Positions 16,339 through 38,020 of a stretch of DNA of 64,000 bases are shown piece by piece. Positions within the stretch are counted from its first letter, which is position 1. Each line of letters begins with the position of its first letter. The notes beneath the pieces were generated by a model that searched no databases, was not told the DNA's origin, and was given only the letters and a program-made list of their open reading frames with translations. The translations under genes were made by a program, and so were the position numbers. The DNA is from Apostichopus japonicus (Eukaryota; Echinodermata; Holothuroidea; Aspidochirotida; Stichopodidae): positions 14,503,417-14,567,416 of the forward strand of contig NC_092571.1 in NCBI RefSeq assembly GCF_037975245.1. Direction: 5' to 3'.

Positions 16339-16468
16339 TCAGCTGCTGTGATAACAAAATTCATCTGGATCGACATCGAATTTAAACTTGAGCAAGTCTT
16401 CTACAGTTCTTGAATCGTAAGTAAGCTCACCGATGTCATATCGCCGGTCCCGGTGAAGACGATGAATG
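16339..16468 (-). CDS. IgSF receptor, exon 4: cytoplasmic tail and stop (unit B)
   Basis: This is the terminal coding exon of the IgSF gene that starts at 37862. A strong acceptor precedes it: a pyrimidine run TTTCTTTTTTCCTCTCGTT followed by GAAG. The exon opens in phase 2, matching the donor of the transmembrane exon, and reads 42 residues before TGA at 16341-16339. The tail is basic near the membrane (RLHRDRRYD), then acidic (DVDPDEF), with tyrosines in DRRYDIGELTYDS and in CYHSS. No canonical ITIM or ITAM is present. The sequence is conserved in units A and C, but only this copy is both spliceable and in frame. The intron before it is about 14.4 kb and full of insertions, so an extra exon cannot be excluded. 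Confidence 0.65.
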
Positions 16469-16999
16469 CTTCAACGAGAGGAAAAAAGAAATATCATTAA
16501 TAGTTCGATAAGCAGTAACATGATTAATCTTCTTCGAGTTAAACACAATGAGATCGCTGTATGTATCAGTACGGAGTGCTTGTTCATCTCATCCGATAAA
16601 TTTCATTGAATACGAAATTAATAATTGTATTAGTGACGCAGTAACGATACACACAACATGGATAAGGAAAAATACTGTTCGTTACGCATTTATGGAACAT
16701 GCTTTGATCTCACATGTTCCTGAAGTATGTGCATGTGAGCTGCCCTCGTTTTCTACTTTGAAAACAAATTATGTTTTTTTATTTAAGATTACATTATATA
16801 TCATTTAGTATGTTGTTCTAACATGGAGTAAATATTTGAGACAAAGGAAAAGTACTAGAACCTTAGCTAACTATGTGGATTATAGTGAATCATAGATGTA
16901 TTCATTTCCAATGAATAACGTGTATTTCTCTCAATCCGCTGAATGTAAGCGTCATTAGGCTAGCAAAGCTACTTACCGATTGCAGGTATGAAAGAAGCG

Positions 17000-18960
17000 C
17001 GCCATTATACTGGGCATTGCAGTTATAATTTACTTGCAGAGATTTTGTGTAATAAATGTTATCATTATTTTAATAAAGTAATAGAAAAAATTAAAAGGTA
17101 AGTAAAGTAAATATTACTAGGACGTAACCGAGAATCACGTTTGAAGCATACCAATGTCAGCGTAAACAATGGGTTGCGCTTAGGCCGAGGAGATTGGTAT
17201 AGGCGTAGTAGTTTAAAGAAACGTTCCTACTTTAAATTATGGCATTCCTGGTAAAAAGTTATGCAAAATGATGTCAGATTTCCTTTCCGCGATAGCTTCA
17301 CCAAAGTTGATGTTGTAACAAAAGCAGTCAGAGTGCTTGATATTTGTGTTTTAATCTGTCAAGGTCTTATAGTCTGACTTATTTCCACCGTAACAATTCC
17401 AGGAAAAACAAGACGTAAGGTTAAGCGAAAAGTGGAGTGCTACGGTGGGTACCAACTTTTTCGATGTTCGAACATCTTAGATGTTCCTTATAAGAGCTTT
17501 ACTGTGCATATCAGATGAGACTTTTTATTATTATAAATTAAATAAAGTGAGAAGTGTTGAAGGTACCAAGCGAGTGTCACGAGGGTAGTTTCATGAGGTT
17601 CCGAGAAGTGCCCTAAGAGATAGGTAACCTACAGGCAAGGGAAATTGTGATACGGAGACTAACAAATTGGAACCTCAGTAAGTACCGGGTGAGCGTCACT
17701 TCAGATAGAACTCGGGTCATCTTTTGGAAAGTTCCTGATAGGTGATCCTGTTTTCTACAGCATCTCTGTAAATAACGTGCCAACCGGACATCTGCAACAG
17801 AAAAAATAGTCCGTGACTGGAAAAGTTAATTAGACCTTTGAACAATGCGGTACATCAAGAGTCGTGCAATAATGGTGTAAAGATGAAGTATTCAAATTAG
17901 TTTAACTAATTTAAACACCATTATGGTACAATGCATCTAGATTGACAAATACCAATCATTATATCCAGACCGCTAATACGGTACATTAATTATAATTTTT
18001 GAAACACAAATACCAAAACGATACATCTAGAACCGTTGAAAGCAATGTGATGAAAAAACCCAAAATAACTAATGATAATTAACCTATGCTAAAAAACAAT
18101 ATAGTTAATCTTACTTAAGAAAAATTAAACACATACGATGTACCTCTAAAACACGACATCACAGTATCCCCAACACCAAGAGATAGATCCATAACTTCTT
18201 AAACACCTACACTATATCTAGAATCAATAAAATAAAAACCTAATATTTCAATCAGAGACCACTCAAATGGATATGTACAGAAGCGAGGAAAGAAGTAATA
18301 GCACATCTGCAATTCTGAAGAATAGTCATAGTAAAATCTATCCTACGGAAAGATCAATAATTTGACTTATCAACTTATCAACTTATCAACTTATTGGCTA
18401 GTCAGACGATACCAAGAAACGTCTCTTAGAGCAAAATATGATCACGAATGCTGAATGATAATATAAAAAAATATCCTTAAACACCAAACTATTATCTATA
18501 AAGCCTACTCAATTACTTAAAATGATATTTCCAGAACCATGGAAACATTTAAAACCCTTAACTCTAATAAAGGAAAATACAGCCACAATAAAAAAAAAAC
18601 TTGATATCGTCAAGTGTAAGTATTCTACAATTTGGATCTGTTTTTAAAGGTATATTTATATTAAATGCTATCATTTTCCCTTCTGTGATTATCTTGTCAT
18701 GTGATATACTTAATAAGTTAAGATGACTATTGTGTTTTACTTTGTCTCTTGTAATTTATGTGACCTTATAGGGAGGGTTGTACAGAATATATTCGATTAT
18801 CGCTATGTATCTAACGTAGTTTTAGGACTTGGTTGATTAAAACTTACTATAGGAAGAAATTCAAGAATGGATAGACAATAAACTCCTCCTTTTTCATTCA
18901 AATACCGTGTATGACAAATTTCTTTTCATTTCTGTCAAAGCTTACAAAACTCAAAATCGT
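17000..18960. other. Unit B intron, no gene seen
   Basis: AT-rich sequence within the long intron of the IgSF gene, colinear with 5.2-7.4 kb and 46.9-49.2 kb. A short tandem ACTTATCAACTTATCA run lies near 18377-18395. Nothing else is recognised. Confidence 0.4.
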
Positions 18961-18969
18961 TTACATCAT

Positions 18970-19149
18970 TGGCTAAGATCATGTGTAGTATCCGTTCTTT
19001 TCCCTTTCGAGGGAATGGTGATGAACATCCCGACGATGATCACACAGTCACAGTCTCGATGCAAGGGGACTGGGGCTGAGAGCGGATCAGTTGTTTGGTA
19101 GTTTGGTTTCGTGCCCAGGTCCTTTCCTGGGCGACTTTTCCTTAAAAAA
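18970..19149 (+). mobile_element. U2-headed SINE, copy 2
   Basis: The head is 5'-truncated at U2 position about 19 (GGCTAAGATCATGTGTAGTATC) and includes the GUAGUA branch-site-pairing core. The body reads GATGCAAGGGGACTGGGGCT and the tail has the CCCAGG...CCTGGG hairpin, then an A-rich end. Units A and C show the empty site (near 7440 and 49208), so this insertion is private to unit B. Confidence 0.8.
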
Positions 19150-20189
19150 AAGCATTCACAATTTTTTAAGCAAAGTTTATGAACTATATGTATGACTATC
19201 TGAACCGTTCGCCTGATGTATAAATTATACATGCATAGTCTTCACTTGACCGTCTGTACTATGGTCCTTAATATTCATTTCCTTGTTTTTTTCACAGCAT
19301 AGCAATTAACATTTTAATAAGGTATAATTAAGAAACTTCTCCGAAAGATTAAGCGTTGTATTACAATTGCAATATTACAATTATTACTTTATAAAAGAAT
19401 AAAAATACCCACACAATGCCAGTTGCGTAAGAATAGAAACATTGTTCAAATCAGCATATATAAACTCTCATGAATAGGTGTTTTCGTTTAACGAACATGA
19501 CACAGAATCACTTTATACTTTCACTTAAAAAGACTATTCACACTAAGCAGTTTTTAACTTTCCCCTCTGTTAATAATTGATCGATGTTTTTCTCTCTATC
19601 TCTCATATTCAAGTTAATAGCATACTCATATGTCAGTGACTGGGTGGAGTACATGACACTGTCGTTCGTTAACAAAATCCTGTAAAATTTACATCAGAGA
19701 GAAGTCTTCAATACACCCAAGTTTCAATCAAAGTCAGTGTGTGAACAATATTCAGAGGCTTTATTAACGCATGTTTTTTACTGATGAAAGATACTGACAA
19801 AATTTGATACGTAAAATCTACCTTTAGTCAATGTTTCATCTGGTATAACAGTCTACGGGAACCTTAAATATAAAAAGGCTATAAAGCAAGACATAATTCA
19901 CTTTATACCACTTTACAGTGAATATGTTGGACATCCTATTACCAACGTTCACAAGGTTATAGTCACATCCAAGCCCCTCATTTGATATACTTCGAGAGAG
20001 ACGTAGTGATGACTGCTGCTCAACGTAATATGTACTCGAACAGCTTATTATTATTATATGATTGTATACTCGTGGACCCCAATACATCCGGCAACAATAA
20101 AGATGATGTGCACTGTAGTAATTTTCCTTAACGGGGATTGCCACTAAATTCAGTTCAACATATATTCAACTGTTTTTAAGCGGTTCGTT

Positions 20190-22178
20190 AACTTTCCGCA
20201 GACATAGTCTGCAATGTCACTTTCCAGTTCAAAGTTTAGGATTGAAAAACCCAAATTCTATATGTACAAAGGACAATTTCCGTTTTCATTACTATGCTTT
20301 GGTATTAGTAACTATTGAATCCATGATCCATCAGAAAATGGTACGGGCAGATATGTCACCGTTAAGGTACATGCTCAGTGACGTTCAACTCTAATCGTAG
20401 TACTAAATAGTATTTATATGAAAGTAAAATATCCCACATCCCAAATATCTCACAACCGAAAACAATCTTTTCATCTGACAATAGGTTCATCTTGAAAAAC
20501 AAATCCATTCAGTGCTCTCGGGAAAATACATTATCAGGAACATTTCGACGAATTATACCAGATTAAAAAATCTCAAACTGCTTTTACACTGTAGGTTAAC
20601 TACCTCAGATGTCAGAATGGGATGGTTCGGTAGTGCCGTTTGGCCGTGACGTTTTGTATCCCGCATAGCGGGTCACGTAAAAAGCACCTCAGATTAATGT
20701 TGCAATGTCGCGTTCCTGTACAATGTTTAGGGCTGGAAAACCTCCGTGTGAGTATCTACTTGATATAAATAACGATTGAATCCATATCTGAAATCCCATC
20801 GTACAAAAACTTACGGACAGATATGTCTCCGGTGTTACAGCTCGGTAACATTCTACTTAAATATAAGTACATCTATATGATATTTATGAAGAAGAAATAT
20901 CAGAGAAGGCATAAAACTTCGAATAAGAACAGCTTGACCTAAAAATATCAATCAGTTCTCTTTGAAAAACGACGCTAACAGGAACATTGCGAAGAATAAT
21001 ATGAAAATGAAAAATCACTACATCGCAAGATCTCGTCTCCATAAATATTCAACTGTCTTTAAACTGTGCGTTAACGATGTTGCCGCAAAATTTTGTTTAC
21101 AATGGCCCGTTCCGTGAAAAGATTAGGACTGAACTACCCAAATTCGTTTAACTTTAATCTAAGTTCTATATTATATTGATTTTGAAAGAAAAGCTCAACT
21201 CCGACAACCAAAGAACAAGCTGTTTATCTGATAGTTGGTCCTCTTTGGCAATACAAATATAAACTTTTATCTGTGAAATGTTAGCAGGAACAAAACAAAA
21301 ACTAATACTGAAAAATGGAAAATCTGTTCATTATGAAATCTTAGTTTAAATAGGATTGAAAACAAATCATGAACTTACGATGGTGATTATTCTACTTGGA
21401 ATGTATAACGCTTGAATCTATGATACATATCCACAAACAGCTGATTGTATGCAATATTACGGCCAGATTTGTCTCCGCTGTGAGTTGTCTCCATGAGTTT
21501 GAACACTTAACGAAGTACTATACAATACTTTTATGAAACGGAAATATTTGTAAAGGCATCCTATAATACACAGATACACAATCAGCATGCGGAAAGTTTC
21601 GCTAGCAGGAGCATTACGAAGAGGAAGACAGGAAAGGTAAACCATCCATATTGATAGATTTCAGTTCGATGAATCATCAAATGTGTTCATGTTTTGCGTT
21701 AGTAAGAGAGAATGAATTATTTTGTCTCATTTTCCACATGACTAGGCTTGATAACAAATCATGAACGTTTGACTGATATTCTCCGTGTGAATATCTACTT
21801 GGAGTAAAGAACGATTGAAGTTATCTTCCATATAGAAAGGAACATTTCATTTGTACACAAAAGTACGAACAGATATATAGCCGCTCTGTGATATCTCGGT
21901 GATGTTCAACTATAATCTAAGTACTATATAATATTTATGGCAAATCTACATAAAGGCAAATTCTAGTTCGATCTATCTTTGACTCCTTTATACGATTGGC
22001 GTTCATGGCCACCCACAAATTATTGTTCCAGTGCTGCGTTCCTGTTTAAGGTTTTGGATTGGAAAAAAAAAACAATATCATGACATTACAGTTGGTAATA
22101 TCCTTGTAAGTATATACTTGAACAAAATAAAGATTTTTTCCAGTATCCATGTAGAAAAGTGTATCCCATTGTATATGT
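20190..22178 (-). pseudogene. Array of decayed V-type Ig exons (unit B, part 1)
   Basis: At least four or five degenerate copies of the V-domain exon lie in tandem about 350-500 bp apart on the minus strand. Recurring blocks are the translated core NTGDISVRKF near 20820, HSGDKSGR near 21470 and SGYISVRTFVY near 21860. These match HTGDTFTRTFAY in the exon at 61.8 kb. DNA landmarks TTAGGATTGAAAA and CTAAGTACTATATAATATTTAT recur. All copies have stops and frameshifts. They lie between the transmembrane and tail exons of the gene, inside its last intron. Confidence 0.7.
20625..20690 (+). mobile_element. LINE 3'-end fragment
   Basis: GGGATGGTTCGGTAGTGCCG through GGGTCACGTAAAAAGCACC is nearly identical to the last 65 bp of the full LINE copies. 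It is a heavily 5'-truncated insertion inside the V-exon relic array. Confidence 0.8.
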
Positions 22179-25100
22179 GCTTTTTACGTGACCCGCCATG
22201 CGGGATACAAAACGTCACGGCCAAACGGCACTACCGAACCATCCCATTCTGACAAACGAAACTCAGGTCTAGCGAGCCAAATAAACATACGCCCGCCGAC
22301 CTGCAGAGACAAAACGCCCACCCCCCTCCCCACTCAAACGTTCAAAAACCTACAAATGGACGACCCGCACGCAGCGAAACGAAAAACCCCTCCCCAGCAC
22401 ACCAGCGTCCAAAAAAGGCAGCCCCAGATAAACGTCGAAAATCGCCTTCAATTTGAAGGCGAATGTCAGACTTAACCGCCTCCAGGACTCCCTGCCAACT
22501 GGCAAATTTCCCCCTAAAAACCATATTACATCTATTCCGCCAAACATGTTTTTTTACAACAGAGCAAACAAAAATGATGCGGTGCAACACAGCTACCGAA
22601 CAAACTGGAGGGTCTACCCCATATAAAATAAAGCCCTGCCCCACCGACCATGAACGGTCTCCCGTAACACGGTCGGTCCAGGTCTGGAACCACTCCCATA
22701 AGTCTACTACAAAGCAACAATGCCAAATAACATTAGCAGTACTCTCTAAGCTGTCACAGCCGGTCCTAGGGCACAGTCCATCACCGAATCCCCAATGATA
22801 TCTTTTTAGGTTGGTCACCAAGGCACCGTGTGCAACTCTCCATGCGAGATCACGGAGCCTGCAACCATTCAGCCTTGAATGCACCGAACGCCATACTTCG
22901 GCAGAATGACGTCCCTGGACAAAAATTGCATTCAAGGCCTTATCCCGCAACGAACTGTGAACGAGGGCCGGCTGTGACAGGTCAACAGGGGGCAACTCAA
23001 TCAGAGCGGAGCAGATGACACGCACCACCCTGTTTGGAGTACTACTATGCGGTTCTCTGTTGCTAAAAAGCGACGGAACCCATCGACGCAGGTGCAAACC
23101 GCCCCAAAAACGTACAAAATATGAACAAGGCAACCCTGGGTCAGTTACCGCTACAAACAACTGCTTAAATAACAAAAAGGTCAATTTACTTCCCAGATGA
23201 ACCACCCCCAACCCACCCTTCTCCAGTTTTTGGTACATTACCGCCCTTTTGACAAGCTCTGTACCACCCGACCAAATGAATGAAAATATCGCTCTCTCCA
23301 ACCTCACCAGGACTCGACGCGGAATTGGATACACCGCGCCCGGGTACCACAAGATGGGCGAAACAAAACGATTAATTACGGTGACTTTCCCTAGGATCGA
23401 AAGCCAGCGGGTGCCAAAGGCTTCGAGCCTGCTCTCAAATACCTCAGCCCTCTCGTTCCAGGTGACGTCACAAGGTGCATCGTAGCCGAACCATATACCA
23501 TTAATGTTGATATTCTGATCCGACCACGACGCACCGAATGTTAAGTCTCTGTATCTCCAGCTACCAAGGCGAAGGCCCTTTGTCTTTTCCGGATTCAACT
23601 TCGCCCCGGTAGCTCTCTCAAAGATAAATAAATCCTGCGAGAGGGCACGAAAGGAGCCCAGACTCGAAACAACACACATTACGTCATCTGCATATTGAAC
23701 GCATTTCACTTTGGCACCCCCTGGCACAACGAATGGAACAAGTTTGGAATCCCTTTCCAAAAGACGAGAGAGGGACTCGCTAAACAAAACATAAAGTAAT
23801 GGAGACAGAGGGCACCCCTGGCGCACCCCCCTCTCTACGTTAAAAACCTCCGAACAAAACCCATTTACAATAACAGAACTGAAACTTTCTTGATACAAAA
23901 CAGAAATCCATTTACGAAAAACCGGGTGCAACCGAAACGTCTCCAATACATTCATTAAAAAACCGCGATCCACCATGTCAAAAACCTTCTGCTGGTCCAG
24001 AGACACCAATGCACATGGCAGATCACGCTCAATAACAAAGTCGGTCAAGTCGCGCATCAACCACAAGTTCTGCTGGATGCAATGACCCTTCACTGCACAA
24101 GTCTGGAGATCACCAACAAGATGCGGCATAGCCAGTGCAAGGCGGTTGCACAAAGCCTTAGCCAGCAACTTGTAGTCCACATTGAACAAGGTGATCGGAC
24201 GCTTGTTTTGGGGATCCAAGGGGTCCCCAGACTTTGGCAGCAAAGTAATCATGCCCAGACGTTGACTTTGGTTTAACAGTCCGTTTTGGAAGGCGTCCTC
24301 GAAGACGGCTCTGATGTCGGGTCCTATTATTGCCCAGAAGGTTCGGTAGAACTCCCTTGGAAGCCCGTCCGAACCCCGGGGACTTGCCATTCTTCATCTT
24401 CGAAAGCGCCTCCAAAGCTCAACAGTGGTTATTCCGCCCCCTAAAATATCATTGACATCGTGGGGAACGGTTTTTGAGATTCCCCTCAATAAATCAGCCT
24501 GTGCCGACAAGTCGACATTGCCACGCGTAAACAAACTCGAATAATCTCTTTATATACGCGGGCAATGCCGTGAGGGTCACTGACCACGGTCCCATCGGTA
24601 GCGCGCACAGACGGGACGCGTCTCTCACCCGCCGATGAGCTAACGGACTGGTAAAACCTCAGTGAAGGGCGCTCCTCGGCTTCCACCGCTTCGACACGGG
24701 TCCTGACGCGGGCACCGTGATACTTTTCATCGAGATAAGTCTGCAAAGCGATGACTGCCGAAGGGTCGCCAAACTTCACCTCCGCGCACAGCTTCGAGAA
24801 TTTTTCTCTTCGACGCCGTGCGCGGGTCACGCAATACTGAATTGCGTAGCGTTTGATGCGCAACTTGACATCATCCCACCACTGAGATGTAGAAGCAAAG
24901 GCCGGCTTCAATGTTTGCCATCCTTTGTACCTGGTCTCGAAACCTTGGCGGAACTCTGCCTCGTCAAGAATCTGACAGTTAAGCTTCCATAGGCCCCGCC
25001 CGATCGGGAAAATGGAAGGCAAAACAAAACGTGCTACTACAGTGTCATGGTTAGAGAGCGGACAGCTGAGCGTCTCGCAACCCGAAAATTTAAAACTTAC

Positions 25101-25793
25101 GGGCGCATACACTCGATCTATCCTGGAGGCATCTTCAACGTTAGGCCTCACCCACGTATATACCGTACTACACGGGTGCATATGCCTCCAGACATCGGCT
25201 AAAAGGTGTGCCGAAGTGAATCTGTCCAATTCAGTGATCCCAGCATCGGGACTTGCAGACACAGAAGTTCCGAGTCTGTCAAGACCCGAGTCTGGGACAC
25301 AGTTAAAGTCTCCGACCATGACACACGGCGCACTACCAGGAACAAAGGAAGTCAGGAAAAATCTCGTCTAGCAGAAGGCCGATTGGGAGCATACACATTG
25401 CAAATGGCGATGTTACCCTGTGGATACTTGAATAGAATGCAAACCAATCGGCCCTCGTGATCCGTCTCCACCCTAGTGGCACAACCCGCCTGACGAGCTG
25501 ACAAAAGGATGACAGTGCCACAGGATGAAGACGAACCAAACGAAGCATGCAGCTCACCACCCCACTCATAAGCCCATAGAGGGACATCTTCTTCCAAAAT
25601 ATGTGTTTCTTGCAGGCAAACGCAGTCGACCTCCATTGATTTACAATATTGGAAAATGCGACTGCGCTTGCGATGATCCCTCATGCCATTCACGTTCAAA
25701 GTGGCAACTGAAAGTGTATGGGCCATGAGAGGGCAGTGGGGCAAAACTACGAAGACGACGATTCCGTAAGCTTCAAGCGCGCCCTAGACGACA
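22179..25793 (-). mobile_element. LINE copy L-1 (L1/Tx1-like), 5'-truncated
   Basis: A retrotransposon copy carrying ORF2 and a short 3' end with the hairpin CCCGC...GCGGG followed by TCACGTAAAAAGC. A target-site duplication ATTGTATATGT flanks it (22168-22178 and 25794-25804). The 5' end stops just upstream of ORF2, so ORF1 is absent apart from its last codons. It sits in the last intron of the IgSF gene in unit B and is absent from unit C. Confidence 0.9.
22342..25726 (-). pseudogene. LINE L-1 ORF2: endonuclease + reverse transcriptase, frame-broken
   Basis: ORF2 encodes an APE-type endonuclease followed by a reverse transcriptase. It would nick target DNA and copy the element's RNA. Endonuclease motifs are LNVNGMRD, CVCLQET, VYAPN, VGDFNCVPD, SRIDRVYAP and SNHDTV. 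Reverse-transcriptase motifs are FDMVDRGFL, RGVRQGCPLSPLLYVL and YADD (codons at about 23684-23695). A C-terminal Cys/His cluster reads CPRTGC...HCC. Breaks occur near 25352 (after SARRDF), near 24545 (after RVYKE) and near 24390, but the 682 codons from 24390 down to 22342, with the whole catalytic core, are uninterrupted. The motif order and lack of an RNase H domain fit the L1/Tx1 group. The copy is dead as a whole. Confidence 0.85.
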
Positions 25794-25804
25794 TATTGTA
25801 TATG

Positions 25805-26404
25805 TATGTAAGGACATATACATGTCTCCGGTTCAATTCTTGTCTGACTTTTGTGAAGAAGAAACATCATAGAAGCATAGCAATTTCCTACAATCGAATA
25901 AGGTCACTACATTTGCAAGAAATTACTTAGTTACAGCCGTTCCTGCAGACGACTTACTTTGCAATGTCGCGTTCCAGTTAAAGGTTATGAATGAAAATAC
26001 CAAATACAATAAATGGTCTCCTTCCGTGTCTCCGATTGTACGCAACACTAAGGTCAGATTTGTATCCGGAAGTAGTCATTCCCATGAGTTTCAACACTAA
26101 TCCATTGCAAGTTCTATAAAATATTTTTTATGAAAAGGAAATATTTGAAACGGCGGAGTGACATATACAACCAAACAACATATTGTTGATATAAAGTAAA
26201 GCCATTGACAACAAGTCAAATCAATTTGCGGAAAATGTCTCTAGCATGGAAGTTTGGTATATAATCTCCCCTCCAAATCGCATAAAACATCGTCGGATTG
26301 TAGGATTGCAAATGTTCGATTGATAATCTCAGTGTAAGTATCTACTTGAATCTATGATCCATAGCGGAAAGAGCATCCTATTGTAGACAGAAGGTGGGCA
26401 GATA
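25805..26404 (-). pseudogene. Decayed V-type Ig exons (unit B, part 2)
   Basis: Continuation of the relic array after the LINE. One copy lies at about 25960-26250 (GCGTTCCAGTTAAAGG, GTCAGATTTGTATCCGG). The first half of another lies at 26285-26404 and is cut by foldback element 2 at GGGCAGATATA; its second half resumes after 29898. Confidence 0.6.
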
Positions 26405-27569
26405 TAGACCGACAGCCCAGTGCACTTTGATCAAACGAACGAGGTACCAATATCTGAGTATTGGAACATTTGTGGAAAAACCCAGTATATCCAAAAGTGG
26501 ATGTCTGCCGTGGTCGCTCTGCTGCATGTGGCCCCTGGGGCCAGTTAAAGGGGGCCCAAAAATGCATCTGATCAAACGAACGAGGTACCACTTGAAACCA
26601 ATGTCAACTTAATGCATGAATGCCACATAGTACTGAATGGCCCATGCCAGACAAATTTTCTGCTGCAAAGGGCCCGCCAGACGCCCAAGAAGGGCCCCTA
26701 AAAAACTGCATCTGATCAAACGAACGAGGTACCACTTGAAACCAATGTCAACTTAATGCATGAATGCCACAAATTACTGAATGGCTTATGCCAGACAAAT
26801 TTTCTGCTGCTAAGGGCCCGCCAGACGCCCCCAAATATGGCCCAAATGCCCGTTAGCGTAGCATTGACCCAGATTAAATATGCAAGGTACCACTCAAAAT
26901 CGGTTTGGAATGTTCGGGTTGATCTTACAGACTATGGAAATCATCATGCCAGACAAATTTTCTGCTACAAAGGTCCCGCCAGACGCCCCAAAATGGCCCC
27001 TAAAAAAATGCATTTGATCAAACGAACGAGGTACCACTTGAAACCAATGTCAACTTAATGCATGAATGCCACAAAGTACTGAATGGCCTATGCCAGACAA
27101 ATTTTCTACTGCTAAGGGCCCGCCAGACACCCCCAAATATCGCCCAAAATGCCCATTATCGTAGCATTGACCCAGATTAAATATGCAAGGTACCACTCAA
27201 AACCGGTGGAACCACACAAAAACAATATTAAATGCAAAGGTACTTTCCACAGAGTAAAGAACTGCAAATGCAAGACAAATGTTCTTCTGCATAGGTCCCA
27301 CCAGATAGAAAGAATACGTGGCCCAATGTGGCCCTATATATGGGTCTAAAGAATTGGATATATGTGCCTTGTAACATGACATTTCAAGCTCATGATTATA
27401 TTGTGTCCAGCATAAATTGGAGTTACTGTACACAAGACCAGTGTTTTATCTTATTTAGCTATTCGCTGCTCTAAGCAAAATAAAGATAACACTTTCACCT
27501 AAGCCTCTAAATACTTTGGGATTTGCTGGCCGGGGCAAAAATTACATTTCCCCACTTTATAATTCTAAC

Positions 27570-27806
27570 ACTCTGAGGAAGAGTCTTGCCTGGCTTGGAT
27601 CCACAGAACTACGGTTGGAAGAGCAAGAATGGGTGCTACAGCCCTGACTGGTTTGAGGGAACCGCCTTTCCCAGATCATCTATTCCAAGAGGGGGAACTG
27701 AGCGAAGATTTTCAAAGTAGCCGACCAGACGTGGCTTCAGAGTTTGATGCCGATGATTCAAGTACTGAACCATCTTGGAGTGATGACTCCGACAATGAAA
27801 CATAGA
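27570..27806 (+). pseudogene. Coding-like remnant in core of foldback element 2
   Basis: After a TAA near 27566 the plus strand is open for about 78 codons and ends with an acidic Ser/Asp-rich C-terminus (DADDSSTEP, WSDDSDNET) and TAG. In the next frame, directly after a CAG at about 27606, the text reads YGWKSKNGCYSPDWFEG, which also looks protein-like, so a single frameshift may join two parts of one C-terminus. I do not recognise the family. It could be the 3' end of a transposase or of a captured host gene. Confidence 0.4.
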
Positions 27807-27839
27807 TTTGAGCTTCCATTGTCTTTTTAGAATCAAGTT

Positions 27840-29080
27840 CTTGGGAATACTTAATTTTCATAAACTTACTAATGATTCTTTTGAGATCTGTCTGAATGGC
27901 AAATGCAGTGTCTTTTTACAATGCACACACTCCAGTGTTTAATCACTGTCAAGAGACATGAATTCTCAGTTCTTATACTTCGAACCTAACATGTGTCATG
28001 TTCAGAGTAATCACATAGTGATCTTTTGTTACTATCTTTGCCAATTATGATTTTAGTACATTTTAAACTAGCAAGATGACTCTCTTGAAAGGTAAAAGAT
28101 TCCTTCATAGATGAAAACAAAAAACCCTCATCTAGTATTCATATTTCTGAAAAATGGATGCCACATCTATTTGTTGGACTTGTTACAAGCTATTCGAATT
28201 GAATTAGTGTAATGATGGAAGTTCTAAACGACCAAGATGGAGTAATATAGGCCAATTACTCATTTTATATTTTTTATCAAGGAATGGAGTCATACGTGGT
28301 GATATCAGTATTTGTTTGTTCAATCTTAGCATTTTAAGTCCTTTAAAGAGTGTACCTAGCATAAAGGTACATATACATTTCTATGCTTCAATTATGTATC
28401 TTTTAAAAAGCATATTGGACAGTTTCAACCCAAACCTTTATCGTTAAGTACACGTTATAAAGCATTTTCACCATTGTTTGATAATTGCTTCTTTGTCTGA
28501 GCTTAAGAAACAAAACAATCTCTTTTGTTCGACTACATGTATGTCTTAAGATGACACTTAAGCGTTCTTTCTCAAGATTTTAAACTTTGTAGATTTACAA
28601 TGCTAACGTAAACACAGTGTTTTAAGATACAAAATAATTTTGGGTTTCTTATTTACAATACATAAACTGATTTTAATCTGCTCCAGTGTTTCCAGCGAAA
28701 CAAAGTAACTGCAAAGTTAAACACTGCTCACGTTACAAAGTACTGACTGGATAAAAGGAAAAAGAATGGATAAAAGGAAAAAGAATGGATTTGAGAATGC
28801 ATTATAACTGTCAGGATCTCCCTCAAAGACTGAGTTCGCGTCATTTTTGTTTTGCTCAATGAAATGTTCAGTAATTGATACACCTACTAGTATACTAATC
28901 TCATTATTCCATTGGCCTATGTAGCGGGAAGGAATTTGAATAATTCAGGATGTTCTTGATTGTTATAGATTGGTTTCTTGTGGTATCTTAACTATTTAAA
29001 CTGCATATTTTTTTTTACATGTGGTGGGCACTTTGCAGAAGAAAATTTGTATTGTATTGGCATTTCTTTACTCTGTGGAA
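27840..29080. other. Core of foldback element 2, nothing recognised
   Basis: Single-copy AT-rich DNA without motifs. A small direct repeat GGATAAAAGGAAAAAGAAT occurs twice at about 28749 and 28768. Confidence 0.4.
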
Positions 29081-29898
29081 TGCTACAAATGTCATGTCAC
29101 AAGGCACATATAGTCTGCATCGATATACAATTCATTAGGCCCATATAGGGCCGCATTGGGCCACCTATACTTTCTATCTGGTGGGACCTATGCAGAAGAA
29201 AATTTGTCTTGCATTGGAAGTTCTTTACTCTGTGGAAAGTACCTTTGCATTTAATATTGGTTTTGTGTGGTACCAACTATGATTGATCATGGCCCATTTG
29301 GGGGCCCTTTTTTAGTGTGTCTGTTAGCCCGTTTGTAGCAGAAAATTTGTCTGGCATGATGATTTCCATAGTCTGTAAGATCAACCCGAACATTCCAAAC
29401 CGGTTTTGAGTGGTACCTTGCATATTTAATCTGGGTCAATGCTACGCTAACGGGCATTTGGGCCATATTTGGGGGCGTCTGGCGGGCCCTTAGTAGCAGA
29501 AAATTTGTCTGGCATAGGCCATTCAGTAATTTGTGGCATTCATGCATTAAGTTGACATTGGTTTCAAGTGGTACCTCGTTCGTTTGATCAGATGCATTTT
29601 TTTAGGGGCCCTTTTGGGGCGTCTGGCGGGCCCTTTGCAGCAGAAAATTTGTCTGGCATGGGCCATTCAGTACTATGTGGCATTCATGCATTAAGTTGAC
29701 ATTGGTTTCAAGTGGTACCTCGTTCGTTTGATCAGATGCATTTTTGGGCCCCCTTTAACCGGCCCCAGGGGCCACATGCAGCAGAGCGACCACGGCAGAC
29801 ATCCACTTTTGGATATACTGGGTTTTTCCACAAATGTTCCAATACTCAGATATTGGTACCTCGTTCGTTTGATCAAAGTGCACTGGGCTGCTGGTCTA

Positions 29899-30200
29899 AT
29901 ATGTTCTGGTCTGGGATATACCGGTGGAGTTCAACTCTATTTTATATAATACTATATAATATTTATACGAAAAGGAAATATATAGAAAGACCAAGCTGTG
30001 CAACGGAAAGACAATCGAATAACAATATTTAGATCCGACAGTTGTTCCATCTTGACAATAGAAAATTACAATCATTATTCTTGGAAAAATAACGCATTTA
30101 CACGACAATTTCGAGGAATAAAATAGAAAACTATAATTCCGCGCTGTCAGTATATTGCTTTCTAGTTGAAATTTTGGGATTGAAAAAACGAACATTTATG
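29899..30200 (-). pseudogene. Decayed V-type Ig exon (unit B, part 3)
   Basis: Second half of the V relic split by the foldback element. GGAGTTCAACTCTA, ATACTATATAATATTTATA, CCATCTTGACAAT and GAAAAATAACGC follow in the same order as in the relics at 20.3 and 54.9 kb. It is followed by the start of another relic (TTTTGGGATTGAAAAAACG) at about 30170. Confidence 0.6.
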
Positions 30201-30915: not shown

Positions 30916-31000
30916 CTGTAGAAATATACGATGATTATCACAGACAGGACGAGTACTACAGCAATTACGATCATCACCAACTTCATTATGTTGTTCGTGT
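30916..31000 (-). CDS. IgSF receptor, exon 3: transmembrane segment (unit B)
   Basis: An 85-nt exon with acceptor ATCTCTACAG and donor CAG|GTAAGC. It enters in phase 1, matching the donors of both Ig exons, and leaves in phase 2, matching the tail exon at 16468. The 27 complete codons are a short linker (TNN) and one long hydrophobic helix starting MKLVMIVIAVVLVLSVIII and ending in VYFYR, a typical single-pass transmembrane segment with a basic stop-transfer residue. The unit C counterpart has the same length and phases. Flanking intron sequence also aligns between units. Confidence 0.75.
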
Positions 31001-31394
31001 CTGTAGAGATGACATTAAGATATGTAAATATGTTAATATCAGCAACCATATTACGTAAGTGGATTAAATTCACGGCAAAGGGGTGAATGTTCTTCGACAT
31101 GAAAAAAATTGTTTCATAAATAATACTTGTTTGTGAAGTATATTTACTAACTTAATAAAATGTGATACACTAGATTGCTTTGCTTAGCTCTCAATGCAGT
31201 CTCAATTCAAGGTTTCGTCAAACTGATTTTTTTATCATTTTGCAGTTAGTAGATATGTGTCATCCAGTTTACTTAAATGTTATGTAAACTCCGCTAACCT
31301 ATTTACATGGAAAAGGGCTCACATAATGATATTGATTATTATAGGGGTATGCTTCTTACAAATTGTATATCTGCAGACAAAAATGCTCCATTTT

Positions 31395-31880: not shown

Positions 31881-32089
31881 ATGGAAACGTCGCACTTGAT
31901 ATTCCGTTTGTCCTTAAGTACGTCGTTCAATGTGTGATCTATCGACTCTCTCCAGCAACTCTTGTAAACTAAGAGCAATATTCCGCGAAAAATTACATTT
32001 TTTTTTATGGTTATGCTGATTAGAGCAGAGTGGGACTGGTCATGAGGCAGATGACTTCACCAATAAAAATGGGCGGTTGACAGTGCTAT

Positions 32090-34240
32090 TTGCCCAAGCA
32101 AGGTAGTTTGCTTGCTGTGTGGAAAGGAGGGTCATGTTTTTCGAGCCTGCCCCTTGTCATATAAAAGCATGGCGAAAGCGCGAGGTGCAGCAGGCAACGG
32201 GACCTGTTCTGCTTCAATTTACAAAGGTGGAGGACCAGGTGACCCCTGCGTGTTTGGTGCCGGTGGGTCCCATGCTGCTACTCGCCCTTCCACATCCCTT
32301 GTGGAAATTCCTGTTGTCACTTATCCCTCCCGACAATTGCGGATCTCCAAATGAAATGGATTGGTTTGATGAGGTTGGGAGGCTAGCCTGAAGGTCGGCA
32401 TGAAATAAGGGAACGAACCCACGTGAAACGGTTGGAGTCATCGTCATAGTCAAATGTGAGGGTGTTACATGTTTCAATATTGTAAGTGTATTGATGTCGA
32501 CTACGTTTGCCTTCAGAAAATTCGCATAACTGAAGAGAATGCCGATTATGTACCTATAGTTGGGGTGGTGTCCTTCATGCTTCCTTTGGTACGGTCTCAT
32601 TCTGTGGTGCGGTCGTCCTGATTTCTCCACGTCTGTCTGGCCCTGCCATCAGGATTAAGACCGATCACGAATGTCGCTTGGTATGCGTACTATTAAAATA
32701 CCTACAGGGAAACGTTACCTTATGTACCGTTTACCCGCCTAATCAATCTTATCCAGGGGAGGACTTTTGAGACTTGCCATCCTTTTACCTGGCAGTGCAA
32801 CTTGTGTCGTGGTCGGAGATTTTAATTGGGAGGCCAAAGAGTTGATAGGCTTTGGAAGGTGTTTTGAGGTGTCTTAACCATAGAGGTCATAAATTATCTT
32901 GGGTAAGACCAAATGGCTCTGATGCTTACACGGTGTCTAATTGCGATGTTATAATTTGCCCGTATTCCGATAATGGTGCTGTGGTAGCTAAGTCTATTCT
33001 TTCATCTTCCCTGTGGAAAGTGGATTCTGAAAAGTTAATTGTCATATCTTAGGGGAAAGACAGTTTCTCAATGGATTAGAATACAGGTACATGGGACGTT
33101 GTACCTTGAAGCAGGCCTTTATGTATTTAACAGGCTGGTGGGAGGATGTCAAGTTGCGCATCATTCGATATGCTGTAGAGTTCTGTGTAGCCAAAGCTCG
33201 TCGTCGAAGAGAGGATTTTTCAAACCTCTGCGTGAGTGTCAAACGTGGGGCTCCCTCCACTGATGCGGCTAAAAAATACATTAATGCTAAATGCCATGGA
33301 GCTCACATAAAAAATGCGTGGAAGCGGAGGATCAACCATCATTTAGTTTTTACCGAACATCCTTTTGGCTAAGATCATGTGTAGTATCTGTTCCCTTTCG
33401 AGGGGAATGGTGATGCCCACACGAGGACGATCACACAGTCCCAAAGCAAGGGGACTGGGGTTGAAAGCAGATTAGTTGCTCGTTAGTTTGGTTATCGTGC
33501 CCAGGTTCTTTCCCGGGTGACTTTTTCTTAAACATTATCTCTTGACAAACGTGTTCAGCTGTCCGTAATACAAATAGGAATACATTTTGTGATCCGGTAA
33601 GCATTATCTCCGTATACAAAGATTTTAAAATAACCTCTTTTCACGAGACAATGTCAATGGTCAATTGGGTGCTTACTTTCCTTCACCGAACTTGGATGGC
33701 GTTGTCAAAAATGAAGAATGGCAAACCTCCCGGATTGGATGGGCAACCTGGGGAATTTTACAGATCGTTTGGTTGATCATCGGATCGAATATTAAGACCG
33801 TCTTTGCCAGCGCCTTCGAAATCCGAGTACTTCAGCCTCTGCTGGTCGGAGGGCGTACTTCCTTTTTTAGGGGAGGGGGGCTCGCTTGACTTAAGGTTTC
33901 TTTTTCAGATTGGGCTGGTTTGGTACTGCCGTGTGGCCGTGACGTTTAGATTCCCACAGGGCGGGTCACGTAAAAAGTACTCGAGTACTTCCTCCAAATT
34001 ATCATACTTGAATTTCTATTTTATACACCACAAGTCTAAGTTCTCATATTATCAACAGGCACTGTTCTTATTCCACTTGTGCAGGGAGGTGGGTCCGTCA
34101 AGGATGCCCTTTATCCCAACCACTTATATTTAGTTACTAAGAAAACCTCACATTTGTTTAAAGAAGATATGTGTTTCATTCCTTTTGTTTTGCCGGGTGG
34201 TAAGAGTGTCAAATGCGTTTCAATACGCGGATGATGTCAA
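32090..34240 (+). mobile_element. Old LINE mosaic (ORF1 knuckle, ORF2 pieces, 3' end)
   Basis: Order and content: an ORF1 zinc-knuckle piece CLLCGKEGHVFRACP (about 32110), a strongly mutated endonuclease region (32490-33050), an ORF2 linker WWEDVKLRIIRYAVEFCVAK (about 33130-33200), a U2-headed SINE insertion, a KMKNG-like block (33700-33890), the LINE 3' end (33915-33985), and a reverse-transcriptase piece ending QYADDV (to about 34235). The left junction matches 56.39 kb in unit C, so the insertion predates the B/C split. It is far more decayed than copies L-1 to L-3. Confidence 0.7.
33362..33540 (+). mobile_element. U2-headed SINE, copy 3
   Basis: CCTTTTGGCTAAGATCATG, then GTAGTATCTGTTCCC, gives the longest clean U2 match through position about 45. 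The body has AAGGGGACTGGGGTTGAAAG and the tail GCCCAGGTTCTTTCCCGGG, then TGACTTTTTCTTAAA. It is inserted into the old LINE mosaic. Confidence 0.8.
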
Positions 34241-34399
34241 AGGTTTTTACATGACCCGCCCTGCGGGATCAAAAGCGTCACGGCCAAACGGTACTACCCA
34301 GTCATCCCATTCTAACAAAAACACCACAAGTCAAGCGAGCCAAAAACTAAAATACAACATTTAAAAAACACAAAAGGACGACCAGCACGCAGCGAAACT
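34240..34399 (-). mobile_element. LINE 3' fragment, minus strand
   Basis: ACATGACCCGCCCTGCGGG, then GCGTCACGGCCAAACGG and GACGACCAGCACGCAGCGAA, reproduces the last 160 bp of LINE L-2. The right junction precedes CTGTTAGATGTGCTGC, which is uninterrupted at 58.63 kb in unit C, giving the empty site. Confidence 0.75.
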
Positions 34400-35231
34400 G
34401 TTAGATGTGCTGCAATGTTAGTGCTTGAGATGACAGTGCCATGGATTTGGTTTCAAGGTTTTTGGATCCTACACAAACATCCTACACAAACACTGACATT
34501 AAAAAAAAATGTTTTAATATACAGCTTACTTTAAGTCAATATTTGTGACAAAAGCACCAAATTTACCCAATGTTAAGATAAAACGTTACATATCTTCGAT
34601 CCAATTGCACAAATACACATCCAATAATGGACTGCTAAAGTTTAGTTTATGATGTTTCCATATTATTTCTTTACCTATTTGCTAATTATTTTGGGAGTAG
34701 TAGATCCCTTTAAAGCTGTGGTGAAACTTATTCGCATCTTCCCTCGTCCATCTCAGAACAAACCCCACGAGAGCATTACGTCTTCTCCCCTCACAGGAAC
34801 GTGGAACCATCTGTTAGGTCACCACTTATTACACATTACGTCATGAGAATTACCATCAAGCTTATGTATTCTAAAAGGTTATCAAGAGTATAGGCTCATA
34901 TTTTAAAACCAACTATGAATTCCGGGATGCCTTCTTTCATTACAATTTTAGCGTACGCAATGACACCATGCTAAACAAATAATGGTTTTGCTCCCCCTAA
35001 ATTTTCCCAGTCAATTTAATATCAATACATTATACGTGTTTCTGTACGTTTGGGTTGTAAGATTGCAAATAATATGTACAACAATGTGAATAAGAAAGGT
35101 TGTGTCTTGAATGAGATATTGTCTGCCAGCAATGTTTCTGTAGGTCAGGCGTTTTTCTTTAAGATATATCTTTCCCGTTCAAATAACGTTCTTACAATCT
35201 TCATAAAATACAAATATGAGTAATGACTTAC
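34400..35231. other. Intron, colinear with 58.6-59.5 kb, no gene seen
   Basis: This stretch between LINE debris and Ig exon 2 aligns with unit C (GTAGTAGATCCCTTT near 34696 and 58845). The open frame at 34649-34846 is not conserved and is not called. Confidence 0.45.
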
Positions 35232-35579
35232 CTTGATCAGTTCTAGAGATGCTAAATTCACATCTGTCATCGTACTGTGATGTAGTTTTGGACTCCAACG
35301 GTTCCTGGGTAGCGATGCATCCAATGGTTGAGTTCTGATTACAAGAAGTAACGTACACTGAAAGCTCTTTAGTTCCGTTATTATCTGTGTAATGTTTCTG
35401 ATAATCACAGCCATCGGGTTTGATTACTTCCAGATTTATCGGTGGATACCCGTCTGTTATTGAACAAGATAGGACGACGTGGTATGCTGCAGATGGAGAT
35501 GAAGAGGGGCCTTCACAAACAAGAGGTGTAGACTCTGGGAGGCTGGTAGACTGTAGTGCCTCTGTAGGAGGCTGGTAGA
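35232..35579 (-). CDS. IgSF receptor, exon 2: Ig-like domain (unit B)
   Basis: A 348-nt exon with acceptor TTTTCTCTTTACAG and donor CAAG|GTAAGT, phase 1 on both sides, so it can be included or skipped without a frame change. It encodes one Ig-like domain with six cysteines (PLVCEGP, LSCSITDG, GCDYQKHY, TSCNQN, IGCIAT, DRCEF), the same pattern as the second domain of exon 1. Potential N-glycosylation sites are NNGT and QNST. A 36-nt in-frame duplication near the acceptor adds a Ser/Pro-rich stretch absent from unit C. Just upstream, V-domain sequence survives only as decayed remnants (35590-35700), so this exon was once the second half of a V + C pair. Confidence 0.75.
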
Positions 35580-35699
35580 CTGTAAAGAGAAAACCGGAGT
35601 TATCATCAGTCAATGATTGAATGAAAAGTACAAATATCCTCTAGCTGAAGGTTGAACTCAAGGAAAGTACCACGAGTAATCCTCCTCAATATATTGAAC

Positions 35700-37028
35700 A
35701 TTAAGTTAAGTAAATATTTATTGACTTTGCAGCGAACATTTCCTATTTTACCTTTATTTTAAAAGAAAGGTCATTGCCACTTAAAGATTACCGACACATA
35801 TGTTGGGCTAGAAACGAAATATAGCAATATTACGTTAAGTCATAATATTTTAGTGTTGCATTCGTATAACAAAATACACGGACTGAATGTAAAGAAAACT
35901 GTCGACGCTCTCACATGCAATATCAGACTTAACATAACTCCGTGAGCATTCTACCTTAATTAGCTATGAATAATTGACGAATGCTTCCACAATGTTACGT
36001 TACATTGTAGACACCTACACCTAAATGCGTGACTTAGATGAATACACTTTCATCTTAAGCATTAAGCAAAAAGTGTTAATAGTAATACCCCCGGAAGAAC
36101 CTTTCGAACCACTCATATAAACTCTATATAAAATTCCTGTTTCCATATGAAATCAATGTAATATTTATCGAGTTTTTGAGATGCCACAAAACGAGATTAG
36201 AAAGCACTGATGCTATCTTTAATAATTTCGCACAGACTGAGTGCGTATTAGTATATTCAACATTGTGAATTAATCACGGCGATTCATCATTTGATTTATA
36301 TGATGTAGTTCTCGAGGACCCGCGCGCCACTTTAAAGTAGCTATGCCATTTAGGACTTTTTCTTGTCGATAATTTACCATGTTCACCCTATATCTTCACA
36401 GATTCGATACATACCAAAACCCACTGAAATAACAACAGTCCAATTTCCTTGCAAGAACATGTTGCTTCAACTAAGCCACTACACCATTCTTTAAAGACTA
36501 TAGGTAGTGCCCTCGTTATATCAATTCTTGCTAACTTTTCATTGTGAATCATGCAATGGTGCCGTCTTCCATGTAATATAACTAGCACATGTTCTAATGT
36601 AGTTATATTCGCCACTGCATGCAGTGCAACGTTTTTTTTTAAATAACATTATGAAGACTATTTATCAACACAGCAAGACTTCCCTGCATCACTGTACTAA
36701 AGTACATGTGTGTTTGTACGATAGCGTTGAAAGTTCACAAATATGAACCAGGCAAAGACAGGTACATCAGGAGGCAAGGAAACACTTTGAAAGAGCTAAA
36801 ACTCATATTGGATTAAATTGTGTACTTTAACGATAACAGGATACTAGCAGTTACAAAAGTACATTGCTTTCTTTGGTGCGATTTAGTATTCGGAAATTGC
36901 TCGTCTGAAACATTTTCGAAGGGGGTGGGGTATTGTTTGTTAGGCGATGACTTTAAGAATGATGAATAGACAAGTTTTTTCTTTCAAAGCATTTGCGTAC
37001 ACGGTTAGTAATAAATGACAAAAGACTT
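35700..37028. other. Intron between Ig exons, nothing recognised
   Basis: AT-rich sequence colinear in part with 60.0-60.6 kb (for example the ATGAATAATTGACGAATGCTT-like block near 35964 and 60288). No exon-like open frame with splice sites was seen. Confidence 0.4.
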
Positions 37029-37030
37029 AC

Positions 37031-37862
37031 CTGGATTACTTTTAGAGATGTTAAATTCACATCTGTCCGAATACTGCGGTGTGGAAAGGAACGCCATCGT
37101 TTCCTGGGTAGCGATGCATCCAACAGTTGAGTTCTCATCACAAGACGTTATGTCAACAGAAAGCTCTTGAATACCGTTTTCATCCGTGTAATGTTTTTGA
37201 AAATCACAGCCATAGGGCTTAATCATTTCCAGATTTATCGGTGGAAACCCATTTGTTATTGAACACGATATAGATACGTGGTAGGAGACAGATGGGGACG
37301 AGGAGGGGCCTTGACAAACAAGAGGTGTAGGAGGCTGGTAGACTGTAAAGAGATTATAGGTGTGGTGAGAGTAAAGTGTATACGGAGAGTTATCATCAGT
37401 CAATGACAGATGATAAGTACCAGCATCCCGTCGTTGCAGGTTTAAGATAGAAAAAGAGAAATCAACCTTAGTAACTTCAGGCCAGTAGAAGTAGGATAGA
37501 TCTTCCTCGATATATTCTACTTTTACTTGAAATAAATATCGATTGACTGTCTGATTCTGCCTTCTTTGTATACCGTTGTAAGAGTAAGTCCCTTTAGAGG
37601 GAACGTTTCCATTAGTACGTCCGGTAAAGTTCATCGCTACTCGTAAACCATATATATATCTACTATATATATCCACTTTAATATGATCTGTGTTAACAGT
37701 AATATCCGGGAACGAGAAGTCACAAGCTAGCATAGCGTAGCATTCCTTTGAATTTACTGTTTGTCCTTCTGTGCAGTGATAGTTACAACCGATTACGTTA
37801 CAAGCATATAATACCAGGAAGATGGCAATATGCAAGAACTTTGAAACGATGAAACCATCCAT
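37031..37862 (-). CDS. IgSF receptor, exon 1: signal peptide + V-like + Ig domain (unit B)
   Basis: First coding exon of a predicted type I membrane receptor, probably a cell-surface recognition or adhesion molecule. The ligand is unknown. It has 277 full codons, then donor CAG|GTAAGT in phase 1. Residues 1-25 are a signal peptide with a hydrophobic core (FLHIAIFLVLYACNVIG), which supports the start. Residues about 26-175 form a V-like domain with CDFSF near 47 and DAGTYHLSL at 146-154; the cysteine expected after DxGxY is replaced by histidine. Residues 176-277 form a six-cysteine Ig domain. Candidate N-glycosylation sites are NFT78, NQT103, NST244 and NIS271. Joining this exon to 35579-35232, 31000-30916 and 16468-16339 gives 1395 nt with no stop until the last codon. 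No specific orthologue is recognised. Confidence 0.8.
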
Positions 37863-37971: not shown

Positions 37972-38020
37972 TGCGCATGCGTTAATTTGCTTTCAACTGT
38001 GCATGACTGGAAAATATATT
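37972..38020 (-). promoter_or_regulatory. Possible promoter elements of the IgSF gene
   Basis: A palindromic TGCGCATGCGT (37972-37982), close to the NRF-1 consensus, lies about 110 bp upstream of the start codon, and an AATATATTTT stretch (38011-38020) lies further upstream. Neither is proof of a promoter. Confidence 0.25.

What the first reader, a model, noticed from the sequence alone, without database searches (positions are those of the whole stretch)
16339..37862. A complete four-exon IgSF receptor gene spread over 21.5 kb
Exons 37862-37031, 35579-35232, 31000-30916 and 16468-16339 have consensus splice sites. Their phases chain 1-1, 1-1 and 2-2, and the total is 1395 nt with a stop only at the end. 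The predicted product is signal peptide, V-like domain, two six-cysteine Ig domains, one transmembrane helix and a 42-residue tail. Exon 2 is symmetric, so a shorter isoform is possible. The last intron has absorbed a LINE, a foldback element, a SINE and V-exon relics.
Basis: partly seen in the sequence, partly recalled or inferred. Interest (0 to 1): 0.85.

Follow-up and report, generated by a model that had tools for sequence, protein, structure and literature searches.

The report
Sea cucumber immunoglobulin-receptor array gene

Summary
The four exons, splice sites, phases and 1395-nt frame are as described, and copies elsewhere in the genome indicate a real gene. It is one unit of a 1.47-Mb, single-orientation array (C11:13.19-14.66 Mb) with matches to 45 'A' exons (leader+V+six-Cys domain; the finding's exon 1), 42 'V0' exons (leader+V) plus 9 V0 relics, 25 'B' exons (leader+V+six-Cys), 34 Ig2, 29 transmembrane and 37 tail exons, broken ones included, in a repeated order. 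V0, A and B, where intact, each carry ATG, signal peptide and a phase-1 donor, and most have an NRF1-like motif 110-160 nt upstream, so a unit looks like a variable-first-exon cluster feeding one Ig2-TM-tail set. The window gene has lost V0 and B and keeps A only. The 42-residue tail is the weak part: 28 of 31 tails with an acceptor have one extra base and give a stub of 6-27 residues. V lacks the usual F-strand cysteine in 41 of 41 sequences. V loops vary freely, the rest is constrained. No RNA evidence was available; splicing between classes and function are inferred.

The parts
37031..37862 (-). Exon 1 (class A): ATG and signal peptide (37862-37788), V domain (37787-37344), first six-cysteine domain (37343-37031), phase-1 donor
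   Evidence: 45 class-A hits in the array; 36 recovered from ATG to the donor region, 35 of them open; dN/dS 0.59 over 35
37973..37980 (.). NRF1-like core GCATGCGC/GCGCATGC, 111 nt from the ATG; probable promoter element; its only exact occurrence in the window
   Evidence: core present in 30 of 35 A upstreams, at -110 to -122
37343..37352 (-). Acceptor-like CTCTTTACAG|TC inside exon 1 at the V/Ig boundary, same sequence as the exon 2 acceptor; possible internal 3' splice site
   Evidence: ACA|G present in 34 of 35 A exons; no AG at this place in the 19 of 23 B exons whose boundary was read; codon use does not show extra constraint
35232..35579 (-). Exon 2 (class Ig2): second six-cysteine domain, phase 1-1; its acceptor lies in the remains of a former V exon
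   Evidence: 34 examined, 27 with ACAG|TY acceptor, 30 with G|GT donor, 25 intact; dN/dS 0.57
30916..31000 (-). Exon 3: transmembrane helix, phase 1 to 2; the donor holds an in-frame TAA (AGG TAA) if not spliced
   Evidence: 29 of 29 array copies with AG...GT and 85/88 nt; CAGGTAAGCA kept in 6 of 6 aligned, two of them outside the array
16339..16468 (-). Exon 4: tail; reads 42-43 residues here because the exon is 1 nt shorter than in most copies
   Evidence: 3 of 31 tails with an acceptor have 16 nt between acceptor and CGG, 28 have 17 nt
20341..30136 (-). V-exon relics in the last intron (30136-29905, 21938-21756, 21558-21351, 20540-20341)
   Evidence: match V exons and similar relics in the TM-tail introns of other units
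22178..25783 (-). LINE copy (endonuclease and reverse transcriptase frames) in the last intron; also present in the sister unit
26405..29898 (.). Foldback element, longest arms 589 nt, 97% complementary, in the last intron
38895..43269 (-). LINE copy upstream of the promoter, about where other units carry V0 (intact, or a relic in the sister unit)
61276..62037 (-). Neighbouring unit: B exon relic (5 TGA, 2 TAA)
59535..59847 (-). Neighbouring unit: intact Ig2 exon
56080..56164 (-). Neighbouring unit: TM exon (beta class)
46321..46510 (-). Neighbouring unit: tail exon match (beta class)
4594..4746 (-). Orphan tail exon copy without the homologous acceptor

Best explanation
The gene is a functional unit of a tandem array of IgSF-like surface proteins. 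Shown by sequence: a standard unit reads V0 - A - B - Ig2 - TM - tail, all on one strand; V0, A and B, where intact, each hold a start codon, signal peptide and V domain (A and B also a six-Cys domain) and end in phase-1 donors; Ig2 is 1-1 and TM starts in phase 1, so any V exon can join Ig2 or TM in frame. Inferred: each V exon has its own promoter (an NRF1-like site at a roughly fixed distance) and is spliced alternatively to the shared Ig2-TM-tail set, as in UGT1 or protocadherin clusters. In this unit V0 and B are gone, so it makes mainly one product, V-Ig-Ig-TM with a long tail, or V-Ig-TM if exon 2 is skipped. The V domain shows its variable loops outside the cell, while the tail, in most copies a motif-free stub, only anchors it. 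Inferred role: recognition (microbe, self/non-self or partner) by a germline-encoded repertoire; the target is unknown.
For: Exact exon chain. Array and order: the next element after V0 is A in 42 of 51 cases, after B it is Ig2 in 17 of 25, after Ig2 it is TM in 22 of 33, after TM it is tail in 21 of 29; 171 of 234 steps go forward against a mean of 96.8 (sd 4.4) in 5000 shuffles. Separate starts: V0 donor G|GT at the V end in 25 of 26 examined, 22 intact; A 35 of 36 recovered open; B donor found in 15 of 23, 6 intact with start. Promoter motif: within 3 mismatches of a 12-mer in 33 of 35 A, 17 of 22 V0, 4 of 6 B, against 51 of 2125 background segments; all 14 core 8-mers in the 15 long stretches examined (192.6 kb) lie 107-193 nt upstream of the start of a V0, A or B exon, two of them of B relics. 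Constraint: dN/dS A 0.59, V0 0.71, B 0.65, Ig2 0.57; three V loops pN/pS 1.04 against 0.50 for the rest of V.
Against: No RNA was available, so no junction or promoter is proven. The motif may be kept by common descent of the exons rather than by use, the copies are not independent, and the exact core is in only 8 of 22 V0 and 1 of 4 B upstreams. TM dN/dS is 1.23 (29 copies, 27 codons) and the tail frame is not clearly constrained. Of 15 unit pairs that I compared in held pieces, 10 are 99.4-100% identical; they may be uncollapsed haplotypes, so copy numbers may be inflated. Only 6 of 23 B exons examined were found intact with a start in the pieces held. dN/dS is NG86 on pooled pairs, without a likelihood test; 0.6-0.7 is weak constraint; the loops were chosen after seeing the profile. 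I did not test whether B has an acceptor that would make it an internal exon.
Confidence: 0.66

Rival explanations
1. Ordinary tandem gene duplicates: each V-bearing exon heads its own separate gene (V0 and B genes being secreted or dead), and only A genes use Ig2-TM-tail. No shared use of downstream exons.
For: Each V class has its own start and motif; B and V0 are often broken or missing, and the window gene is complete with A alone.
Against: V0 is directly followed by A in 42 of 51 cases and A by B in 19 of 45, with no Ig2, TM or tail match between, and usually one Ig2-TM-tail set follows the group. V0 ends at the V/Ig boundary with a phase-1 donor in 25 of 26, so it needs a downstream partner; one that my queries could not match is not excluded.
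Confidence: 0.2
2. The window gene is a recent pseudogene or fusion: A was brought next to the constant exons by loss of B, a LINE disrupted its upstream region, and the one-base deletion in the tail is decay.
For: LINE at 38.9-43.3 kb just upstream, no V0 or B match, tail frame differs from 28 of 31 copies.
Against: Full 1395-nt frame with all splice sites; the A-Ig2 arrangement without B at a gap of about 1.5 kb is shared by four units (14541278, 14221008, 14380580, 14659369), so it probably predates their duplication; promoter motif intact at -111.
Confidence: 0.12
3. The terminal exon is not the real tail: the TM exon normally ends the protein (in-frame TAA in the donor), or joins another exon, and exon 4 is non-coding.
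For: 8 of 29 TM exons lack a matched tail before the next A exon; tail frames are inconsistent; no clear tail match was found within about 12 and 17 kb downstream of the TM exons at 7.55 and 4.51 Mb.
Against: CAGGTAAGCA donor kept in 6 of 6, two of them outside the array, while the flank diverges; tail acceptor AG present in 31 of 32 copies; TM and tail classes co-segregate.
Confidence: 0.25

Closest known systems
UGT1, Gcnt2 and protocadherin alpha/gamma variable-first-exon clusters (PMC1885805, passages)
   Same: Tandem first exons, in UGT1 each with signal peptide and recognition domain and a conserved upstream motif at about the same place, followed by shared exons that include the membrane anchor
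   Different: Here only two or three first-exon classes per unit, but the whole unit is repeated (29 TM exons matched); IgSF-like domains; splicing not shown
Hydractinia Alr family in the allorecognition complex (PMC11067881 and PMC11999971, passages)
   Same: Clustered single-pass IgSF proteins with unusual Ig domains, intact genes beside many likely pseudogenes
   Different: No sequence comparison was made; one orientation and a repeated V0-A-B unit here; tails short and without signalling motifs; polymorphism and fusion tests not available
Vertebrate V-set and other Ig proteins (SIRP, CEACAM, SLAM, antibody light chain)
   Same: Weak sequence similarity in the E-F-G strand region; invariant Arg and Asp-x-Gly-x-Tyr
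   Different: No F-strand cysteine in 41 of 41; extra N-terminal cysteines
Sp185/333 sea urchin immune gene family (PMC1988830, PMC3091723: starts of abstracts in search listings only)
   Same: Large clustered echinoderm family
   Different: Genes of two exons under 2 kb (listing); no Ig domains (recalled); not compared by sequence

Membership tests
IgSF V-set domain | Match to the Pfam V-set profile | tested here: inconclusive
   38 of 41 members match PF07686 at E <= 0.1, best 7.8e-6; window member 20.1 bits against a cut-off of 26
IgSF V-set domain | Arg of strand D and Asp-x-Gly-x-Tyr of strand F | tested here: met
   R83, D121, G123, Y125 invariant in 41 sequences (strand assignment recalled from general knowledge)
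IgSF V-set domain | Canonical B-F disulphide (Cys in strand F) | tested here: not met
   that column holds V 21, L 17, I 3 and no Cys in 41
IgSF C-type domain (six-Cys domain) | Ig beta-sandwich fold | tested here: inconclusive
   seven strands, pLDDT 63, three sequences; no Foldseek hit at E <= 0.001; best Z 6.2 (rmsd 2.7, 84 aligned) to bacterial sandwich domains; no PDB match; only weak C2-type profile hits (12 and 8 of 31)
Variable-first-exon cluster | Several first exons with own start and signal peptide, same-phase donors, one downstream shared set | tested here: met
   for standard units, at the level of sequence; the window unit itself keeps only one first exon
Variable-first-exon cluster | Conserved motif upstream of each first-exon class | tested here: met
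   33 of 35 A, 17 of 22 V0, 4 of 6 B within 3 mismatches; promoter activity not tested
Variable-first-exon cluster | mRNAs joining each first exon to the shared exons | not testable with these tools
   no RNA data
ITIM/ITAM or charged-helix signalling receptors | Tyr motif in tail, or charge inside the helix | tested here: not met
   translation read by eye: no [ILVS]xYxx[ILV] in the window tail; the helix core is uncharged (motif recalled)
Hydractinia Alr | Sequence relation; allelic polymorphism controlling fusion | not tested
   Huene 2022 is not held; no population or fusion data

The most novel reading that the evidence does not exclude
The whole array works as one germline V repertoire: V0 and A exons in units that lost their own TM exon are kept because they splice onto the constant exons of units downstream, and the A exon is dual-use (leader+V+Ig as a first exon, or Ig only, through its internal acceptor, when V0 is the first exon). 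Some 112 V-bearing exons (hits, broken ones included) would then feed about 29 membrane anchors combinatorially.
Probability: 0.14. Interest if true: 0.92.

Novelty: new variant of a known kind. Interest (0 to 1): 0.7.

Why it matters
Invertebrates lack rearranging antibodies, and how they build many recognition surfaces is an open question. An echinoderm array with about 29 membrane anchors and over 100 V-bearing exons (broken ones included), with constrained frameworks and free loops, would be a germline recognition repertoire in an animal with easily sampled coelomocytes, testable with long-read RNA. The multi-promoter unit plan gives a concrete prediction (V0, A and B donors all joining one Ig2). 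It also warns annotators: the Pfam scores seen for the window gene fall below cut-offs, so the family can be missed. I found no description of such an array in the papers searched (listings; full-text word searches of a CC-licensed library only).

Tried and rejected
Structure: AlphaFold2 on exon 1 alone gave pLDDT 41, unusable; a three-sequence alignment of window six-Cys domains gave pLDDT 63, and fold searches were undecided. I did not send G000 paralogues to the structure tool, because its stated rule does not name loci from that source.

Extra constraint on the internal acceptor of A: Thr codon ACA is nearly fixed there (34 of 35), but also at several other Thr columns, so the test does not discriminate. 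Poly(A) signal after TM as a normal end: AATAAA close behind TM in two sister copies only, one further off at 4.51 Mb, none in the other three. Long tail frame under selection: pooled pN/pS 0.81 over all 32, 0.58 in 12 alpha, 1.66 in 20 beta, with another frame lower in each set; rejected as evidence for the tail. A tail exon in the outgroup loci at 4.51 and 7.55 Mb: no clear match within about 17 and 12 kb. The V profile against PDB: four of five hits had no stretch passing on its own. tRNA and Rfam: none in the window (the tRNA scan used the bacterial setting).

Rows dropped: dN/dS used 35 of 36 recovered A exons (45 hits), 22 V0 of 26 examined, 6 B of 23, 25 Ig2 of 34 and 29 TM of 29; Ig hits with stops ('x') were left out of Ig2, and seven Ig2 without the exact acceptor pattern were not inspected one by one. 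For the profile searches I aligned 41 of 60 distinct V sequences and 31 of 60 distinct six-Cys domains (one search counts them). 32 of 37 tails were read. For the order count I relabelled four relics by hand, dropped two fragments and added nine V0 relics. The loop ranges and the TM/tail cut-offs were chosen after seeing the data.
Full report
WHERE IT IS. The window is G000:C11:14503417-14567416 of a 671.58-Mb assembly in 35 contigs. Size and contig count fit the published Apostichopus japonicus assembly (671.60 Mb, 23 chromosomes, 34 scaffolds, GC 38.6%; PMC10344927, passages); the window is 39.5% GC. The species is an inference from these numbers.

OBSERVATION. All four exons, their consensus ends, phases and the 1395-nt frame are as stated. 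Within the window there is a second, damaged unit (B relic 62037-61276, Ig2 59847-59535, TM 56164-56080, tail about 46.5-46.3 kb) and an orphan tail copy at 4.7 kb.

THE ARRAY. Searches of the own genome with Ig2, TM, tail, V, V0 and B place most hits on the minus strand of C11 between 13.19 and 14.66 Mb. Fewer lie at C11 4.1-4.5, 7.55, 11.11 and 18.05 Mb, on C18 15.16-15.68 Mb, and one TM on C4. Counts in the array: A 45, B 25, V0 42 plus 9 relics, Ig2 34 plus 14 broken, TM 29, tail 37; broken copies are included except where named, and the search tool calls its counts lower bounds. Order is V0-A-B-Ig2-TM-tail: 171 of 234 neighbouring steps go forward against a mean of 96.8 (sd 4.4) in 5000 shuffles. 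The next element after V0 is A in 42 of 51 cases (median gap 1.4 kb), after Ig2 it is TM in 22 of 33, after TM it is tail in 21 of 29 (median 7.0 kb; 14.3 kb in the window gene, whose intron holds a LINE and a foldback element).

THREE KINDS OF FIRST EXON. Where intact, V0, A and B exons each begin with ATG and a signal-peptide-like leader and end with a phase-1 G|GT donor. V0 stops at the V/Ig boundary (HTYRLF-G|GTAAGC). A core 8-mer, GCATGCGC or its reverse complement, occurs 14 times in the 15 long stretches examined (192.6 kb), every time 107-193 nt upstream of the start of a V0, A or B exon; two of these are B relics. Within 3 mismatches of TGCGCATGCGCA the site is found in 33 of 35 A, 17 of 22 V0 and 4 of 6 B, against 51 of 2125 background segments; the exact core is in 30 of 35 A, 8 of 22 V0 and 1 of 4 B. 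It resembles the NRF1 site GCGCATGCGC (PMC10810270, passages); in A one half-site is changed. The copies share descent, so these counts are not independent trials. By eye, the upstream consensus sequences of A, V0 and B look unlike each other apart from this element.

SELECTION. Pooled NG86 dN/dS: A 0.59 (signal 0.49, V 0.68, Ig1 0.45; n = 35); V0 0.71 (22), B 0.65 (6), Ig2 0.57 (25), TM 1.23 (29). In V of class A, three loops, chosen after seeing the profile, have pN/pS 1.04 and the rest 0.50. A exons with no matched TM before the next A are as intact as those with one: 14 of 18 against 21 of 27 are in my open full-length set (one of the 18, 14398037, is missing only because my piece was cut). 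Their dN/dS is 0.60 (14) against 0.60 (21); a first, hand-made division gave 0.58 and 0.63. They are kept for something: a secreted form, or splicing further downstream.

THE TAIL. 37 tail copies were found and 32 read. The acceptor AG is present in 31. Three copies (this gene, its sister at 14203201, and 14159913) have 16 nt between acceptor and CGG and read the long frame from the phase-2 TM donor (43, 43 and 41 residues); 28 have 17 nt and give a stub: 11 residues in 19, 14 in 7, 6 in one, 27 in one (the script had mis-set the acceptor in three of them). From a phase-1 donor (Ig2 or A, skipping TM) the 17-nt form would read the other frame; this is noted, not shown. 8 of 29 TM exons have no matched tail before the next A.

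DOMAINS. V: Pfam V-set in 38 of 41 at E <= 0.1; the profile against PDB chains reaches VEGFR1, CEACAM1, MXRA8 and SLAMF5 at 4e-6 to 8e-3, mostly without a single stretch passing on its own; exons 1+2 reached a SIRP chain at 8e-5. Cysteines lie N-terminally (C-x3-C...C-x5-C) and the F-strand Cys is replaced by V, L or I in 41 of 41. Six-Cys domain: C38, C57, C79 and C106 of the first row invariant, C21 and C87 nearly so, over 31 sequences; the fold is probably Ig but unproven.

MECHANISM. Best reading: each standard unit is a small variable-first-exon cluster. Transcription starts at V0, A or B; the chosen exon joins Ig2 (or TM); the product is a V-tipped, single-pass surface protein. The B exon sits between A and Ig2 and opens with its own ATG and leader, so an A transcript should splice over it (I did not test for a B acceptor); this makes sharing of Ig2 likely where both are intact, as in the units of A 13720574, 14125915, 13495230 and 13238218. 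The window unit keeps A only. Ig2 itself seems to be a former V+Ig exon whose V part decayed into intron, with the acceptor at the old Leu-Phe-Thr-Val codons; the same acceptor-like sequence still stands inside A (34 of 35) and not in the 19 B exons read.

CAVEATS. No RNA. Of 15 pairs of units compared in held pieces, 10 are 99.4-100% identical; very recent duplication and uncollapsed haplotypes cannot be told apart here. Literature searches cover a CC-licensed library only.

Noticed in passing
C11:14.380-14.431 Mb against 14.220-14.271 Mb (L013/L004, L011/L017, L012/L018, L091/L094, L092/L095, L119/L121): A block of units repeated about 159.5 kb away; six held pairs 99.6-100% identical (the TM piece just below it, L120/L004, only 96.5%): very recent segmental duplication or an assembly (haplotype) duplicate.
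   Followed up: partly
C18:15157647-15684889 (eight V+six-Cys exons, 53-57% to B): A second, smaller cluster of B-like exons with open frames of 285-288 aa, on both strands.
   Followed up: no
C11:7546507-7554396 and 11107845-11116542: Two similar isolated units (V0, Ig2, B-like, TM; the second with two Ig2 matches) 3.56 Mb apart on the plus strand.
   Followed up: partly
window 22178-25783, 38895-43269, 49692-53309: Three related LINE copies (endonuclease and reverse transcriptase frames), matched stretches 85-99% identical; one lies in the last intron and one near the promoter of the gene.
   Followed up: no
window 9738-11266: Local inverted repeats (arms of 315 and 184 nt, 93-95% complementary) with direct repeats spaced about 145 nt.
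   Followed up: no
C11:13697414-13697578: A fragment matching an A exon lies inside an open frame of 1734 aa; possibly an insertion of a mobile element.
   Followed up: no
L168 and L177 (units at 13.782-13.792 and 13.590-13.600 Mb): TM-less units keep an open A exon while B and Ig2 carry stops.
   Followed up: partly
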